In this document: positions 1-5,525 of the stretch, in pieces
Layout of the letters: every line of letters starts with the position of its first letter
Numbering within the stretch: position 1 is the first letter of the stretch
NCBI GenBank assembly: GCA_913776795.1
Contig: CAJYRH010000398.1
Span: 1 to 5,525 of the forward strand
Source of the DNA: an uncultured Pseudorhodoferax sp.
Lineage (GTDB): Bacteria; Pseudomonadota; Gammaproteobacteria; Burkholderiales; Burkholderiaceae
DNA length: 5,525 bases
Direction of reading: 5' to 3'
Position numbers and translations under genes: made by a program
Notes under the pieces: model-generated
The model's database searches: none
What the model was told of the DNA's origin: nothing
Seen by the model: only the letters and a program-made list of their open reading frames with translations

Positions 1-684
1 GACGACTACCGCAGCCTGGCCATGGAGGCGCCCGCCATCGACGTGGGCCGCATCGAGGTGCTGCCGCGCTTCAAGCCGCGCGACCGGCGCTTCCACGTGC
101 CCGGCGTGGTCAGCGTGCTCGCGCTGCCCGCCGCGCCGCTGGCGCCGGCCCCCAACCCGCGGCCCGACCGGCCGTTCATCGAACGCCTGCACGCCCACTT
201 GTCGGTGCGCACGCCACTGGCCACCGAGCTCTACGTGATCGGCTGCGACTACGTGGCGCTGGGCCTGACGGTGGCCGTGCTGGTGCGCGACGGCCATGCG
301 CGCGACCAGGTGCTGCTGAATGTGCGCGAGGCGCTGCGCCGCCTGCTCTGGCCGCTGGCCCCCGGCGGCCTGGACGGCGGCGGCTGGCCGCTGGGCCGCG
401 CCGTGCGTTCGCGCGAGCTGGAGGTCGAGGTCTCGCGCGTGCCCGGTGTCGACGAGCTGCGCGGCCTGCGCCTGTTCCAGCGCCAGGGCGACGACTGGCA
501 GCTGCTGCCGGGCATCGCGGCCGACGGCGCGCAGCAGCTCGTGCTCTCGCCCTGGCAGCTGCCCGAGCTGCTCTCGGTCATCGCCGTCGAGGGCGCCAGC
601 GCGCCGACCGACCTGCGTGCGCTGCCCAACCCCTTTGCCGATGCGAGCGCCGTGGCGGTGCCGGTCGTGCCGGAGCTGTGCTGA
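1..684 (+). CDS. Putative baseplate assembly protein, C-terminal part (gpJ/gp6-like), 5'-truncated by window edge
   Basis: The reading frame is open from base 1 to a TGA at 682-684, giving 227 codons of a longer protein; the ATG at 22 is internal. The sequence resembles the C-terminus of the putative baseplate assembly family (TIGR02243, related to phage P2 gpJ/T4 gp6). It has a DDYRSLA motif at the beginning, then a PGVVSVLALP strand, a proline-rich link, an IERLHAHLSVRTPLATELYV helix-strand stretch, and GGWPLGRAVRSRELEVEV near the middle. The end is a QLPELLSVIAVEGAS-type strand. Such proteins form the wedges of the baseplate around the spike in contractile tails and injection systems, and act in the cytoplasm during assembly. 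A gpI-like tail gene follows, the usual partner, but here it is 771 bp away. Family assignment is from remembered motifs; the N-terminal part is outside the window. Confidence 0.82.
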   Translation, partial: DDYRSLAMEAPAIDVGRIEVLPRFKPRDRRFHVPGVVSVLALPAAPLAPAPNPRPDRPFIERLHAHLSVRTPLATELYVIGCDYVALGLTVAVLVRDGHARDQVLLNVREALRRLLWPLAPGGLDGGGWPLGRAVRSRELEVEVSRVPGVDELRGLRLFQRQGDDWQLLPGIAADGAQQLVLSPWQLPELLSVIAVEGASAPTDLRALPNPFADASAVAVPVVPELC

Positions 685-697: not shown

Positions 698-715
698 CCC
701 CGCCCTCAAAAGTCC

Positions 716-767
716 AGGCCGAGCGCAGCGACGGCCCGGACACCAGGCCGAGCGAAGCGATGGCCCG
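716..767 (+). repeat. Two direct copies of a 23-bp motif
   Basis: AGGCCGAGCGCAGCGACGGC at 716 and AGGCCGAGCGAAGCGATGGC at 745 begin two 23-bp units (716-738, 745-767) that differ at two bases and lie 29 bp apart. A third, inverted copy closes the right element at 1379-1401. The motif is therefore the outer terminal tag of the element, duplicated on the left side. Short AAGTCC (710-715) and GGACTT (772-777) bracket the pair as an inverted repeat. Confidence 0.75.
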
Positions 768-978
768 TGTGGGACTTCTCCCTGTGCCCCTGCCGAGGAG
801 CGCAGTGCCATGGGCTGCGCGGGGAGCCTCGCGCTTTGTCATCTGACTCATTGCGCTTGTTCGAGCTACGTTCCCGCAGTGAACGGTGCGAGTTGCGCAA
901 TGCAGCCCATGGCGCGAGCACCGCAGGTTGCCCGGAGCGCCAGCGGAGGGACAGGGGCACCGGGGTCGCCTTCTTTTG

Positions 979-1013
979 CTTGCTTTTCTTGGGCGATTGC
1001 CAAGAAAAGTAAG
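979..1013 (+). other. Hairpin H1 of the left element copy
   Basis: CTTTTCTTGG (983-992) pairs perfectly with CCAAGAAAAG (1000-1009) around a 7-base loop; the stem extends to 979/1013 with one G-T pair. Its counterpart on the right copy is at 1132-1155, with two compensated base-pair differences (986/1006 and 983/1009). No T-run follows, so a terminator role is not supported. Confidence 0.75.
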
Positions 1014-1020
1014 TCGCCGT

Positions 1021-1039
1021 GCGGGGGCGAATACCCCGC
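1021..1039 (+). other. Hairpin H2 of the left element copy
   Basis: GCGGGG (1021-1026) pairs with CCCCGC (1034-1039) around a 7-base loop. It begins 11 bases after the H1 core stem, as in the right copy. The third pair (1023 G, 1037 C) is swapped to C-G in the right copy, so pairing is kept while sequence changes. Confidence 0.65.
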
Positions 1040-1101
1040 CTCTGGACCTCGATCAGGCGTGGTCGTCGATAGAACACATTGCTTTCGCACAAGCACCTGG
1101 A

Positions 1102-1120
1102 GCCGGGATGTGCGCCCGGC
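1102..1120 (-). other. Hairpin H2 of the right element copy
   Basis: GCCGGG (1102-1107) pairs with CCCGGC (1115-1120) around a 7-base loop. Spacing to H1 (1121-1131, 11 bases) and loop size equal those of the left copy. One pair (1104/1118) is inverted relative to the left copy. Confidence 0.65.
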
Positions 1121-1131
1121 AGCGCAGTCAC

Positions 1132-1155
1132 TTTCTCTTGCTCCGCCAAGAGAAA
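1132..1155 (-). other. Hairpin H1 of the right element copy
   Basis: TTTCTCTTG (1132-1140) pairs perfectly with CAAGAGAAA (1147-1155) around a 6-base loop. It sits where H1 lies in the left copy, just inside the end of the well-matched arm. Confidence 0.75.
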
Positions 1156-1444
1156 TTAACCAAAGAGAAGGCGGCCCCGGTGCCCCCGTCCCTCCGCTGG
1201 CGCTCCGGGCAACCTGCGGTGCTCGCGACCTGGGCGCATTGCACAACTCGCACCACTCACTGCGTTCGTTCAGCTCGAACAAGTGCAATGAGTCAGTCAT
1301 TGAAGCGCGAGGTTCCCCGCGCCGCCCAGGCCACTGCGCTCCTCGGCGTGGGCACAGGGGTGGGAGCGGGGTCACACACGGGCCATCGCTTCGCTCGGCC
1401 TGGGGGCTTGGGGCTTCGCTGTGCGCAGCCACAGGCTGGGCCTT

Positions 1445-1455: not shown

Positions 1456-4218
1456 ATGGACGCCAACGGCCAACGCTTCTGGTTGCTCGGGGAGTCCTCC
1501 CACTTCCCGTCGCACGCCCACACCACGTGGGACGCCGACTGCCGCCGCCTGCGCCTGGCCTCCGAACGCGCACTGACCCCTGCGCTGCCCCCCGCCGCCG
1601 CCTTCACCACCGCGCAGGAAGCGCTGGAACGCATCCCCCGCGCCATCGACGCGCTCGAATGCGTGGCCCGGTGGGACGCCGACAGCGGCGCGATCCTCGT
1701 GCGCAGCGTGCTGCCCGACCAGGCCGTGCTGCTGGCACTCGACGCGACGCCCACGGACCTGTGCAACGGCACCGACGGCGTGCTCTACATCCTGCTGCCC
1801 GGCGCCGTGCTGCTGCACGACCTGCGTGGCCGCTGGGCCGACGTGCGCGTGGCGCTGGCCGGCTTCTCGCCCTGGCGCGCGGCCCCCGCAGCCGACGGCG
1901 GCGTGTGGCTCATGGAGCGCGGCACGGGCCGGCTGGCGCGCCTCACGGGCCGGCCGCGCCGCACCGAGACCCCGCAGCCCGACGACTACGACCCGCGCGT
2001 GTTCCGCCCCCACCCCGAAAACGCCTGCGCGCCGCAGATCCGCCTGCTGGCCGGCGCACCTGGCGACGGCAGCGAAAACGCCGTGGCGCTGGCCGCCGGC
2101 CCCGACGGCGCGCTTGCGCTGCTGAGCTGGGCCACCGACGGCGCACCGCGCCTGCGCCGCTGGCGCGCCGATGCCCGGCGCTGGGATGCACCGGCTGCGC
2201 CGCAGGGCGCGGCCTACGCCTATGCGCTGGCCTGGCTCGCCCCCGACCGCGTGGCCCTGCGCGTGCCGGGCCGGCGCGACGCACCGGCCTGGCCGCTCCG
2301 CGACACGCCCGCCGCACTGGCTCCATCCGCTCCACCCGCTCCACTCGCTCCACTCGCACCGCTCGGCGACATCCACCCGCTCGCCGCCGACGCCATCGAA
2401 GCCCCGTTCTGCAACGGCCCCGTGCTGCCGCCCTGCTACCCGGCAGGGCCTGCCGGCGCCGAGCCGCTGCATGCGCTTTCGCTGCACCGCTTCGCCGCCC
2501 AGGGCGAGGCGCGCAACTACGCCGACAGCGCCAGCGGCCTCGTGGCGCGGCTCGTCGACAGCGGCGACACCACCACCGTCTGGCACCGCCTGTTCGCCGA
2601 GGCCATGCTGCCTGCCCACACCGGCTTCGTCGCGTGGCTGGCCGCCACGAACGAGCCCGCGCCGCCGGCCGCCGACGACCAGTTGGCCTGGCATGCGCAC
2701 CTCTTCGGCGGCACCGCGCTGGTCGCGCCGCAGCTGCCCCAGGCCGCCTGGGAGCCCGTGCCCAGCGAGCTGCCGCACCACCCCGGCCTGCTGGGCGGCG
2801 CGCAGGAACCAGGCCGCGCCGGCCTGTTCTCGGTGCTCTTGCAGAACAGCCGACAGCGCGTGCGCGCACTCGCCGGCCGCTACCTGTGGCTGCGCCTGGC
2901 GCTGCAGGGCGACGGGCACGCCACGCCCGAGATCGCCGCGCTGCGCGTGTGGGGCAGCCGCTTCTCGTACGTCGACCAGTACCTGCCGCGGCTGTACCGC
3001 GAGTCGCAGTTCGGCAGCGCCGCCACGCAGCCCGGCGAGCGGCTCGCGGCCATCGACCCTGGATTCAGCGATGCGCTGGACGCCGCCGACGCCAGCGACG
3101 CCGCGCTGCGCGCGCGCCTGCTGCTGGAGCAGGTCCCGCTGGGCGCCGCCGCCCACATCGCGGTGGAGCGCGCCGGCCAAGCCTGGCTGCTGCAGGACGG
3201 CGCCAGCGCCTGGCGCCTGCGCCGCGAGGAAGACGGTATTGCCGTCTACCGCCCGCGCGCCACGCCGGCCGACTTCACCGCGCGCCTGCTGGCCAACTTC
3301 GAGGGCGTGCTGACGCGGCTGGAAGACCGCGTGGCCCACGCCCACCTGCTCAGCGACCCGGCCCTGGCCGACGACGGCCGGCTGGACTGGCTGGCCGGCT
3401 GGATCGGCGTGGCCTTCGACCCGGTTCTTCCGCCCGCGCGCCGGCGCGACTGGCTGCGCGGCGCACCCGACCTCGCGCGCTGGCACGGCACGCGGCGCGG
3501 CCTGCAGCTGGCGCTGGACATCGCCACCGGTGGCGCCGTGCGCGGCGGCGAGGTGCTGGTGGTCGAGGACTTCCGGCTGCGCCGCATCCTGGCCACGCTG
3601 CTGGGCGTGGACCTGGCCGACGAGCACGACCCGTTGCTGCCCGGCCTGCAGGTCAGCGGCAACTCGGTGGTGGGCGACACGCTGTTCGTCGGCGAGCAGG
3701 CCCGCGCCGAACTGGCCGCGCTGTTCAACGCCGGCCAGCTCGGCGCGGCCGGCGAGCAGGCCGCGCTGGCCTTCGACGCGGAACTCGCCCACCGCGCCAC
3801 CGTGCTCGTGCACCAGGCCGTGGAGCCGCAGGACCTGGGCCTGATCCGCCGCATCGCGCAGCTGGAGGCACCGGCCCATGTTGAAGTGCGCGTGGCCCAG
3901 GCCAGCTGGCCGCTGCTGGTCGGCATCGCCAGCCTGGTCGGCGTGGACACCTACCTCGGCCCGCCGCGGCTGCCGCGCCCGGTGCAGGTGCAGGCGAGCG
4001 GCCTGGGCCTGGGCGACTACCTGGTCAGCGCCGCCGTGCTGGACCCGCGCCTGGCCGGCGCACCCGCCACGGCGGCGGCGCCCCGGGCCGATGCCGGCCC
4101 CGACCAGCGTGCGCTGCCCGGCGCGAGCTTCGTGCTGGACGCCTCCGGCTCGCGCGCGGCCTCGGGCCGCGCGATCGCCCAGTACCGATGGCGGTGGCTG
4201 CCACCGGCCGATTCCTGA
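1456..4218 (+). CDS. Contractile-system tail protein (gpI-like, TIGR02242-type) with a C-terminal half PKD domain, 920 aa
   Basis: A large tail/baseplate protein expected to link the baseplate wedge to fibres or tip proteins. Residues 1-290 begin FWLLGESSHFPSH and hold repeated strand-rich stretches such as AAGPDGALALLSW, suggesting a beta-propeller. A 9-bp-repeat linker of APx units covers 289-303. LRVWGSRFSYVDQYLPRLYR (496-515) opens the gpI-like region, an unusual insert spans about 516-603, and the core resumes at ADFTARLLANFE (605-616) with DWLAGWIGVAFD and an RWHGTRRGL motif. ELAHRATVLVH (776-786), IRRIAQLEAPAH and VGVDTYLG (829-835) match the family's usual end. Residues 876-917 (DAGPDQRALPGASFVLDASG, then QYRWRWLP) are the first half of a PKD-like domain, cut short by the TGA. 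No signal peptide or membrane segment is visible. Family is from motifs, not a search; the propeller is less certain. Confidence 0.82.
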   Translation: MDANGQRFWLLGESSHFPSHAHTTWDADCRRLRLASERALTPALPPAAAFTTAQEALERIPRAIDALECVARWDADSGAILVRSVLPDQAVLLALDATPTDLCNGTDGVLYILLPGAVLLHDLRGRWADVRVALAGFSPWRAAPAADGGVWLMERGTGRLARLTGRPRRTETPQPDDYDPRVFRPHPENACAPQIRLLAGAPGDGSENAVALAAGPDGALALLSWATDGAPRLRRWRADARRWDAPAAPQGAAYAYALAWLAPDRVALRVPGRRDAPAWPLRDTPAALAPSAPPAPLAPLAPLGDIHPLAADAIEAPFCNGPVLPPCYPAGPAGAEPLHALSLHRFAAQGEARNYADSASGLVARLVDSGDTTTVWHRLFAEAMLPAHTGFVAWLAATNEPAPPAADDQLAWHAHLFGGTALVAPQLPQAAWEPVPSELPHHPGLLGGAQEPGRAGLFSVLLQNSRQRVRALAGRYLWLRLALQGDGHATPEIAALRVWGSRFSYVDQYLPRLYRESQFGSAATQPGERLAAIDPGFSDALDAADASDAALRARLLLEQVPLGAAAHIAVERAGQAWLLQDGASAWRLRREEDGIAVYRPRATPADFTARLLANFEGVLTRLEDRVAHAHLLSDPALADDGRLDWLAGWIGVAFDPVLPPARRRDWLRGAPDLARWHGTRRGLQLALDIATGGAVRGGEVLVVEDFRLRRILATLLGVDLADEHDPLLPGLQVSGNSVVGDTLFVGEQARAELAALFNAGQLGAAGEQAALAFDAELAHRATVLVHQAVEPQDLGLIRRIAQLEAPAHVEVRVAQASWPLLVGIASLVGVDTYLGPPRLPRPVQVQASGLGLGDYLVSAAVLDPRLAGAPATAAAPRADAGPDQRALPGASFVLDASGSRAASGRAIAQYRWRWLPPADS
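2320..2364 (+). repeat. 9-bp tandem repeat coding an Ala-Pro-x linker
   Basis: GCTCCATCC, GCTCCACCC, GCTCCACTC, GCTCCACTC and a degenerate GCACCGCTC stand head to tail. They encode APS-APP-APL-APL-APL at residues 289-303 of the tail protein, between the propeller-like part and the rest. Gain or loss of units keeps the frame and would only change linker length. Confidence 0.8.
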
Positions 4219-4262
4219 ACCCGTTTCCTGCGCCAGATGGCGCAAGCCGATTCCCGAACCCG
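4207..4262 (+). repeat. 17-bp in-frame direct repeat around the tail-gene stop
   Basis: GCCGATTCCTGAACCCG (4207-4223) recurs as GCCGATTCCCGAACCCG (4246-4262), 39 bases later, which is 13 codons in the same frame. The only mismatch changes the TGA stop of the tail gene (4216-4218) to CGA (4255-4257), so the coded peptides are ADS-stop-TR and ADSRTR. Confidence 0.8.
4229..4244 (+). other. Short hairpin between the tail gene and the first PKD-half gene
   Basis: TGCGCC (4229-4234) and GGCGCA (4239-4244) form a perfect 6-bp stem with a 4-base loop, 11 bases after the stop. The alternative ATG at 4237 begins in the loop and would be partly hidden, which favours the start at 4282. Confidence 0.45.
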
Positions 4263-4269
4263 CAACCCC

Positions 4270-4275
4270 AAGGAG
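4270..4275 (+). promoter_or_regulatory. Ribosome binding site of the 104-aa PKD-half gene
   Basis: AAGGAG stands 6 bases before the ATG at 4282. It is the best Shine-Dalgarno sequence in the window and chooses this start over the in-frame ATG at 4237. Confidence 0.85.
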
Positions 4276-4281
4276 CCCACC

Positions 4282-4596
4282 ATGGCTGAATTCACGCCCG
4301 GCGTCGACGTCTCCACCGACAAGCCGACCATCGAGGTCACCGTCGGCCCCAACAACCCCCTGCCGATCGGGCGCCAGACCTTCCGGCTGGTCGTCATCGA
4401 CGACGCGGGCAATGCCTCGCAGCCCGACCAGGTCGTCATCATCGTCGCCGACCAGGAAGCGCCCACGGCCGTGATCCGGGGGCCGCGCATCGCCGCCTTC
4501 GGCAAGAGCTTCGAGCTCGACGGCTCGGCCTCGTTCGACGCGGGCGGCGGCAAGGTGGTCAAGTACGTCTGGACCTACATGGGCCCTGTGACGTGA
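4282..4596 (+). CDS. 104-aa protein of two half PKD/Ig-like domains (C-half then N-half)
   Basis: No named family is recognised. Residues about 15-57, with GRQTFRLVVIDDAGNASQPD and VVIIVAD, match the second half of a PKD-like beta-sandwich (the final strands with the D-x-x-G-N turn). Residues about 60-101 (PTAVIRGP, then KSFELDGSASFD, then VVKYVWTYMGP) match the first half of another PKD domain, and the protein stops right after the YxW strand. The order is thus permuted against a normal domain. The tail protein upstream ends at the equivalent point, and the next small protein starts with another second half. Two TGA codons stand in tandem (4594-4599). The frame is the same as that of the tail gene, 21 codons after its stop. 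It may be an accessory baseplate or fibre subunit, or a fragment of a broken multi-PKD protein. No signal peptide is seen. Confidence 0.75.
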   Translation: MAEFTPGVDVSTDKPTIEVTVGPNNPLPIGRQTFRLVVIDDAGNASQPDQVVIIVADQEAPTAVIRGPRIAAFGKSFELDGSASFDAGGGKVVKYVWTYMGPVT

Positions 4597-4785
4597 TGAG
4601 GCCACCGCCGTTCGGGCTTCTCGCTGCGTGGAGAAGTCCCATCCCCCCACGAAGGATCGCCAGCGGCCTGGCAGAGCGAGTTCCGCGGCGCCTGGCGGCA
4701 TGGCCTGCTCCGTGGCCCTCGGCACCGCTGCTGGCAAGCCGGTTCCGTACGGCGCGGGCGGCGCACTGCGCCACGGGGCGCTGAC
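4597..4785. other. 189-bp gap without a supported gene
   Basis: Two frames are open on the + strand here. One starts at the ATG 4596-4598 overlapping the upstream stop and ends just before the next start; the other runs without ATG into the next gene. In both, only about three quarters of third positions are G or C, clearly fewer than in the real genes, and the products are R/A/P-rich. A hairpin (4614-4639) lies near the left end. A 12-bp GGAGAAGTCCCA (4630-4641) is the reverse complement of bases 770-781 of the repeat element, possibly a scrap of it. Confidence 0.6.
4614..4639 (+). other. Hairpin downstream of the 104-aa gene
   Basis: GGGCTTCTC (4614-4622) pairs with GAGAAGTCC (4631-4639) through nine pairs, one of them G-T, around an 8-base loop. 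It lies 17 bases after the stop. C-rich rather than T-rich sequence follows, so it may pause transcription or stabilise an mRNA end rather than act as an intrinsic terminator. Confidence 0.45.
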
Positions 4786-5112
4786 ATGGCCCAGTTCGCC
4801 GTGGGCAAGCCCATCGCCACGGACGCGGCCAGCATCGCCGTCGATGCCGGCCTGGCCGTCGGCAGCCACCGCTTCAGCCTGGTGGTGCTGGATTCGGCCG
4901 GCCTGCGCTCGCGGGTGGCCGACGAGGTGGTGGTGCTGGTCCAGCGGCTGGTGGTGCCCGACCGTCCGATCCCGGTCCCGGTGACGCCCGTGGGGCCCGT
5001 CATCCCTGTCGTCGTGACGCCGGTCGTCACCCCCGTCCGTCCCCCTGTCGTGGCACCGGTGCGGCCGGTGGTCACGCCCGTGCGCACCCCCAAACCGAGG
5101 AGACCGCGATGA
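4786..5112 (+). CDS. 108-aa protein: half PKD-like domain plus Pro/Val-rich basic tail
   Basis: No named family is recognised. Residues about 10-53, with GSHRFSLVVLDSAGLRSRVA and DEVVVLVQ, parallel the second half of a PKD-like domain and align with residues 30-55 of the 104-aa protein. The matching first half is the C-terminus of that protein. Residues 56-108 are a low-complexity tail of PVTPV, PVRP and VVTPV units that ends KPRRPR and is likely extended. ATG 4786 follows a CTGAC also seen before the tail gene's ATG; the ribosome site is weak (GGGG at 4775-4778, 7 bases away). The frame stays open upstream to 4600 but has no ATG or GTG there. The stop overlaps the next start (ATGA), so the two are probably translated together. 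It could cap or anchor a chain of PKD halves or be the 3' remnant of a split gene. Confidence 0.7.
   Translation: MAQFAVGKPIATDAASIAVDAGLAVGSHRFSLVVLDSAGLRSRVADEVVVLVQRLVVPDRPIPVPVTPVGPVIPVVVTPVVTPVRPPVVAPVRPVVTPVRTPKPRRPR
4951..5109 (+). repeat. Low-complexity Pro/Val coding repeat
   Basis: Degenerate repeats of gtgacgcccgt/gtcaccccc-like units encode the PV-rich tail (residues 56-108) of the 108-aa protein. Unit length is irregular, so the repetition is clearer in the protein (PVTPV, VVTPV, PVRP) than in the DNA. Confidence 0.65.
5097..5102 (+). promoter_or_regulatory. Ribosome binding site of the last gene
   Basis: GAGGAG lies 6 bases before ATG 5109 and inside the 3' end of the upstream gene, supporting translational coupling through the ATGA overlap. 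Confidence 0.75.
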
Positions 5113-5525
5113 GTACCCAGGCCCCGGATGCCGACCCGCTGCTGGCCCGGCCCAACGCCGACCGGCTGGCGTATGCCACCGGCATGCTGCTGGACGCGCA
5201 GGACTTCAGCGACGAGCAGACCTACCACCGCGGCCGGCTCGCGCGCGCGCTGGCCTTCCTGGCCGGGCCCGGCACGCTGGCCGGGCTGCGCGTGGAGCAC
5301 GTGCCCGGCAGCGCCGGCCAGGTCGAGGAGATCCGCGTGCAGCCCGGCCTGGCGGTGGACCGCCTGGGCCGGTTGATCGAGCTGCCGCGCGCAGCCTGCC
5401 TGCGGCTGCCGCGCTGGTTCGAGGCGCTCGCCGCCACGGGTGGCAACGCGCTGGCCCAGGCCAGCTACGACGACCTGGCCGGGTTCGTCTCGCAGCGCTT
5501 CACCGACAGCGGTGCGGCACTGCCG
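5109..5525 (+). CDS. Hypothetical tail-locus protein, N-terminal 139 codons, open at right edge
   Basis: The frame runs from ATG 5109 to the window end without a stop. The protein has YATGMLLDAQDFSDEQTYHR (residues 22-41), a helical RGRLARALAFLAG, then GTLAGLRVEHVPG, a strand EEIRVQPGLAVDRLGRLIEL (73-92) and PRAACLRLPRWFEAL. From memory, proteins of unknown function with this pattern (a bait-like ATG-LLDA-DF-EQ-YHR start, then GT-AGLRV and PG-A-D-LGR-IE) occur in loci with the TIGR02243/TIGR02242 tail proteins; I cannot name a Pfam entry. It starts with an ATGA overlap and a strong ribosome site, so it belongs to the operon. A structural or assembly role in the particle is inferred from context only. 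No signal peptide is visible. Confidence 0.8.
   Translation, partial: MSTQAPDADPLLARPNADRLAYATGMLLDAQDFSDEQTYHRGRLARALAFLAGPGTLAGLRVEHVPGSAGQVEEIRVQPGLAVDRLGRLIELPRAACLRLPRWFEALAATGGNALAQASYDDLAGFVSQRFTDSGAALP

What the first reader, a model, noticed from the sequence alone, without database searches (positions are those of the whole stretch)
4081..4950. Three consecutive proteins carry PKD half-domains cut at the same point of the fold
The 920-aa tail protein ends just after the YRWRWLP strand of a PKD-like domain. The 104-aa protein starts with a second half and ends just after YVWTYMGP of the next domain. The 108-aa protein starts with a second half. The break falls at the equivalent position both times. 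Either a multi-PKD protein was broken twice at the same place, or the proteins assemble non-covalently by completing each other's beta-sandwich, similar in logic to donor-strand pairing in pili. Seen: the halves and cut points. Inferred: the assembly mechanism.
Basis: partly seen in the sequence, partly recalled or inferred. Interest (0 to 1): 0.72.

Follow-up and report, generated by a model that had tools for sequence, protein, structure and literature searches.

The report
Split domains link three baseplate proteins
Three neighbouring genes of a bacterial syringe-like machine each encode an incomplete piece of a common protein fold, cut at the same place, and the pieces most likely snap together to build a short arm on the machine's baseplate; the same cut is kept in bacteria from several phyla.

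The parts
1..684 (+). 3' end of the putative baseplate assembly protein (Baseplate_J / TIGR02243, CIS11 type)
   Evidence: TIGR02243 positions 508-658 of 659, E 4e-14, partial gene, below cut-off; Baseplate_J below cut-off
1456..4218 (+). 920-aa CIS12-type baseplate wedge protein (Tail_P2_I / TIGR02242) whose C-terminus carries H1
   Evidence: Tail_P2_I 8e-6 over cut-off, TIGR02242 5e-14 over cut-off, CIS12_fam 5e-21 below cut-off
4081..4215 (+). H1 of PKD-1: first half (strands A, B, C) at the very C-terminus of the 920-aa protein
   Evidence: Upstream-H1 model 67.4 bits; 120 of 120 listed homologues end 0-16 aa after the H1 match
4270..4275 (+). AAGGAG Shine-Dalgarno-like site before the 104-aa start
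   Evidence: Sequence; an SD-like motif precedes the middle gene in 61 of 62 loci
4282..4596 (+). 104-aa connector: H2 of PKD-1 (residues 1-57) followed by H1 of PKD-2 (residues 58-104)
4282..4452 (+). H2 of PKD-1 (second half), predicted to complete the H1 of the 920-aa protein
4453..4593 (+). H1 of PKD-2 (first half), predicted to be completed by the 108-aa protein
4786..5112 (+). 108-aa cap: H2 of PKD-2 (about residues 1-54) followed by a Pro/Val-rich, basic-ended tail
   Evidence: 104-H2 model 41.5 bits at residues 1-53; tail statistics of relatives
5109..5525 (+). 5' part of the next CIS gene (CIS13_fam, tail-fibre type), overlapping the 108-aa stop
   Evidence: CIS13_fam E 4e-12 at residues 22-91, below cut-off

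Best explanation
The CIS baseplate protein (920 aa), the 104-aa connector and the 108-aa cap form a non-covalent chain. The C-terminal three strands (A-B-C, H1) of the baseplate protein are an open half-sandwich that is closed by the N-terminal half (H2) of the connector, making PKD-1. The connector's C-terminal half is closed by the N-terminal half of the cap, making PKD-2. The cap's proline-rich basic tail (in some relatives PASTA or beta-propeller-like domains) is thereby held on a two-PKD arm at the baseplate, presumably one arm per wedge protein. Shown: the halves, the cut, the conservation of the split, separate translation signals, purifying selection on the connector, and predicted folding of the halves into complete PKDs across both gene boundaries. 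Inferred: assembly in the cell, stoichiometry, and the role (an exchangeable arm for attachment or anchoring).
Confidence: 0.8

Rival explanations
1. Self-complementing polymer: the connector's H1 accepts the H2 of another connector, so the 920-aa protein starts, the 104-aa protein extends and the 108-aa protein ends a fibre of variable length.
For: The 104-aa protein has both a free H2 and a free H1, the layout of an elongating subunit; H1 and H2 of the three proteins are homologous; its SD is stronger than the cap's in 49 of 59 trios (2 ties, Wilcoxon p 1.3e-8), which would give excess connector; ten orphan connectors lack any partner gene found in the locus; the strongest covariation is inside the connector.
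Against: The 104 and 920 H1 halves, and the 104 and 108 H2 halves, score best with their own models, as distinct pairing partners might; no locus has two connector genes; orphans may be relics (L062 has lost the end of its H1).
Confidence: 0.12
2. Each half is a small domain of its own that binds something else; the half-PKD resemblance is only ancestry.
For: The 104-aa model has high pLDDT (91.7) even alone; orphans exist.
Confidence: 0.05
3. The 104-aa protein is a circularly permuted PKD that closes on itself.
For: It contains exactly one H2 and one H1.
Against: The model of the protein alone shows no closed sandwich. The H2-H1 join matches the join between successive PKDs in tandem multi-PKD proteins. 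It would leave the H1 of the 920-aa protein and the H2 of the 108-aa protein without partners.
Confidence: 0.02
4. One multi-PKD gene broken by mutation in this genome, or joined by stop readthrough or frameshifting.
For: In the window all three ORFs are in one frame, separated only by TGA codons.
Against: Across loci frames, stop codons and spacer lengths vary, starts have SD-like sites, and the split is kept across six phyla; the connector is under purifying selection.
Confidence: 0.01

Closest known systems
PKD domains of collagenase ColG and of AAVR/KIAA0319L (Pfam PKD_4, K319L-like_PKD)
   Different: Those are single-chain domains; here each is divided between two gene products at the loop after strand C.
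Donor-strand complementation in chaperone-usher pili (papers seen in search listing only; details recalled)
   Same: Incomplete Ig-type subunits are completed in trans by the neighbouring subunit, giving a base/elongator/terminator logic.
   Different: Half of the sandwich (three strands), not one N-terminal donor strand, is exchanged; the fold is PKD; the genes lie in a CIS locus.
Extracellular and cytoplasmic CIS (AFP, PVC, Anabaena thylakoid CIS)
   Same: Baseplate J, CIS12-type wedge protein and CIS13-type gene, and in six genomes a sheath gene on the same contig 13-19 kb away. In Anabaena an extra domain of Cis12 forms the wide connector (passages read).
   Different: The words PKD, Ig-like and domain swap do not occur in the main text of the Anabaena paper.
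eBAP4 tail fibres of eCIS with PKD/Ig chains (PMC12923769, passages read)
   Same: CIS attachment chains decorated with PKD modules.
   Different: Described there as modules of fibre proteins; the word split does not occur in the main text.

Membership tests
PKD domain | Sequence of the first half (strands A-C) and of the second half | tested here: met
   Profile matches to the first and last parts of PKD models, individually below Pfam cut-offs; family models and profile comparison
PKD domain | Complete domain in one chain | tested here: not met
   0 of 62 upstream genes continue into H2, and each connector carries H2 then H1
PKD domain | Complete fold when the halves are joined | tested here: met
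Donor-strand complementation (chaperone-usher) | Incomplete Ig-type fold completed by a neighbouring subunit | tested here: inconclusive
   Predicted from a read-through chain; no separate-chain prediction or experiment
Donor-strand complementation (chaperone-usher) | One N-terminal donor strand is exchanged | tested here: not met
   Halves of about three strands are divided between the gene products
Donor-strand complementation (chaperone-usher) | Dedicated periplasmic chaperone and usher | not tested
   Flanking genes were not scanned for them
Contractile injection system | Baseplate J, CIS12-type wedge and CIS13-type genes next to the trio | tested here: met
   Window and L001, with L018 for CIS12 and CIS13; a CIS12-body relative in 54 of the 62 loci ends in the H1. 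CIS12_fam and CIS13_fam matches are below their cut-offs
Contractile injection system | Sheath gene in the same cluster | tested here: met
   PF04984 on the same contig 13-19 kb from the connector in G020, G021, G022, G023, G024 and G1456; the window is too short to hold it

The most novel reading that the evidence does not exclude
A minimal self-assembling fibre: the baseplate protein offers the first open half-PKD (initiator), the 104-aa protein adds head-to-tail through its own H2 and H1 (elongator), and the 108-aa protein with a single H2 ends it (terminator). The CIS would then grow non-covalent PKD fibres of variable length from its baseplate without chaperone or usher, and orphan 104-aa relatives would be stand-alone fibres.
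Probability: 0.15. Interest if true: 0.9.

Novelty: new variant of a known kind. Interest (0 to 1): 0.77.

Why it matters
If true, it adds a second way of building protein chains from incomplete Ig-type folds: exchange of half a domain between products of consecutive genes, in a machine where no such joint turned up in my searches. It would explain small CIS-operon genes (about 50 to 180 aa) that sources call hypothetical, give a modular socket at the baseplate onto which different caps (proline-rich tail, PASTA, beta-propeller-like) are fitted, and offer a natural split-domain pair for protein engineering. It can be tested by simple co-expression.

Tried and rejected
Broken gene, readthrough and frameshift: rejected by conservation, varied frames and stops, and SD-like sites. 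Permuted monomer: no closed fold in the single-protein model. Phage origin of the 104-aa protein: no relative in viral contigs, phage records or plasmids. A fused CIS version: the six loci with single-ORF multi-PKD genes (L048, L065, L070, L072, L077, L080) show no relative of the CIS12 body; five of the six genomes have no TIGR02243 match, and in the sixth (L077) it lies on other contigs. Covariation tests did not separate the possible pairings. Solved structures: no sequence relative of the 920-aa protein at E<=1, and only ordinary PKD or Ig-type chains for the 104-aa family. Surveys of 399 genomes of one order and of 347, 339 and 350 genomes of three phyla gave 5, 3, 1 and 1 genomes with a match, several of them multi-PKD proteins or genomes already seen, so the covariation set could not be enlarged. 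Paper searches whose listings showed no description of a split PKD in CIS or phage tails; this is limited to the open-licence library.

Full report
What is there. The window is part of a contractile injection system (CIS) locus: the end of a baseplate J-type gene, a 920-aa CIS12-type baseplate protein, the 104-aa and 108-aa proteins, and the start of a CIS13-type gene. The 920-aa protein stops a few residues after strand C of a PKD domain, the 104-aa protein consists of the second half of one PKD and the first half of the next, and the 108-aa protein begins with a second half.

Is it more than chance? Models made from the other trios, leaving out the window, L001, L002, L004 and L005, find each half in the window: 67.4, 79.8, 102.8 and 71.4 bits for the matching protein, and 18.5 to 58.3 bits when the H1 or H2 model of one protein is run on its neighbour. 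Reversed sequences reach at most 1.4 bits. H1 profiles match H1 (98.7%) and H2 profiles match H2 (99.8%), while H1 against H2 gives 0.2-0.4%.

Is the split conserved? The 104-aa protein has 129 clustered relatives at E<=1e-3; the 120 listed are 95-108 aa. A scan of one genome for each of 84,980 species gave 87 encoding places, of which 80 loci were kept. Six hold long single ORFs with tandem PKDs (L048, L065, L070, L072, L077, L080); the other 74 and the window hold an H2-H1 protein without the complementary halves in the same ORF. Of these 75, 62 follow a gene ending in H1 (47 found by the H1 model, 15 including the window recognised by eye at the C-terminus), and 61 precede an H2 gene (58 by model, 3 by eye); L071 and L024 were added by eye later. 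Among the 62, 60 have the third gene, L003 ends at the contig edge, and L031 has none. No locus has two H2-H1 genes. Of the 120 listed homologues of the 920-aa C-terminal region (306 hits in all), 120 end 0-16 residues after the H1 match, although some of those matches are weak (from 5 bits).

Are they separate proteins? The first spacer ranges from -8 to 369 nt, in all three frames (27, 25, 10), after TGA, TAG or TAA (36, 20, 6). An SD-like motif precedes the middle gene in 61 of 62. The second spacer ranges from -25 to 189 nt with frames 28, 20, 13 (61 loci). Starts were set by the family alignment. In the window all three happen to share a frame, and its second spacer (189 nt) is the longest of the set. 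Between the window and four relatives the 104-aa gene has pN/pS 0.14-0.51; the short flanking halves have 0.42-0.93, so they evolve faster.

The cut. In 59 trios the upstream protein stops 3-9 residues after the strand-C Trp; the middle protein stops within 12 residues of it in 55 of 59; the middle and third proteins start 33-36 and 22-30 residues before the strand-F Phe.

Which halves pair? Distance correlations given the other two halves are 0.37 and 0.35 for the proposed partners and 0.11 for the non-adjacent pair, but 0.37 also for the two H1 halves, 0.30 for the two H2 halves and 0.30 inside the 104-aa protein. Residue covariation at about 40 effective sequences was uninformative, with the highest value inside the 104-aa protein and the proposed pairs hardly above the negative control. 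The 104-aa SD is stronger than that of the third gene in 49 of 59 loci (2 ties), which would fit an excess of connector. A self-polymerising connector therefore remains possible.

What hangs on the arm? The third protein's tail is usually proline-rich with a basic end: 47 of 59 have a tail of 20 residues or more, with median proline fraction 0.22, and 39 of these 47 have net charge of at least +3 in the last 15 residues. In L043 it carries two PASTA domains; in L042, L046 and L064 beta-propeller-like matches, mostly below cut-offs. In L053, L055 and L066 the tail sits on the connector and the cap is H2 only; in L054 both have a tail. In 54 of 62 loci the carrier of the first H1 is a CIS12 relative; in eight it is not recognised as such: L079 is a 230-aa piece with a weak CIS12 match, L043 a PASTA protein, L063 has a weak CIS13 match, L042, L056 and L064 have no family match, and L046 and L060 were not scanned. 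The half-domain thus behaves like a transferable socket.

Orphans. Thirteen of the 75 middle genes lack an upstream H1. Ten of them (L041, L044, L045, L050, L051, L052, L058, L059, L062, L068) also have no H2 neighbour: by ORF search for all ten and by six-frame search for seven (not L045, L050, L052). Their genomes have no TIGR02243 or CIS13_fam match; one has a below-cut-off TIGR02242 match. A sheath search in five of those ten gave hits in three, none near the orphan. Their role is unknown; self-pairing or decay are both possible.

Literature. In the searches made I saw no description of split PKD domains in CIS. I read found passages of four CIS papers; only one mentions PKD, as modules in tail fibres. 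Donor-strand pairing is the closest mechanism; its details here are recalled, with papers seen only in search listings.

Verdict. The split is real, conserved and most likely functional. The best mechanism is half-domain complementation joining three baseplate proteins into an arm (0.8), with a polymerising connector as the boldest open alternative.

Noticed in passing
window 714-1403: The long intergenic region before the 920-aa gene is a large imperfect palindrome: inverted-repeat arms of 88 nt (85%), 73 nt (93%), 33 nt (97%) and 29 nt (90%) around a centre near 1070.
   Followed up: no
L041, L044, L045, L050, L051, L052, L058, L059, L062, L068 (matches near 10001): H2-H1 genes with no partner half found nearby and no TIGR02243 or CIS13_fam match in the genome, five of them in Methylophilus species; L062 has a degenerate end.
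   Followed up: partly
L053 9429-10064, L055 10001-10634, L066 9992-10562: In cyanobacteria the proline-rich tail sits on the connector instead of the third protein, leaving a third protein of 55-57 aa that is only a half-domain.
   Followed up: partly
L043 7697-10886: An Acidobacteria CIS-type locus in which both the H1-carrying protein (five PASTA stretches) and the cap (two) carry PASTA repeats, suggesting cell-wall binding.
   Followed up: partly
L042 10319-11764, L046 10359-11486, L064 8012-9277: Caps that run on into beta-propeller-like repeats after the half-PKD.
   Followed up: partly
L031 9942-10518: A CIS12-type gene with H1 and a connector with its own 43-residue tail, but no third H2 gene before the CIS13-type gene; its PKD-2 would stay open or pair otherwise.
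   Followed up: partly
window 4597-4785: The spacer between the 104-aa and 108-aa genes (189 nt) is far longer than in relatives (median 13 nt) and is open in frame after the two TGA codons.
   Followed up: no
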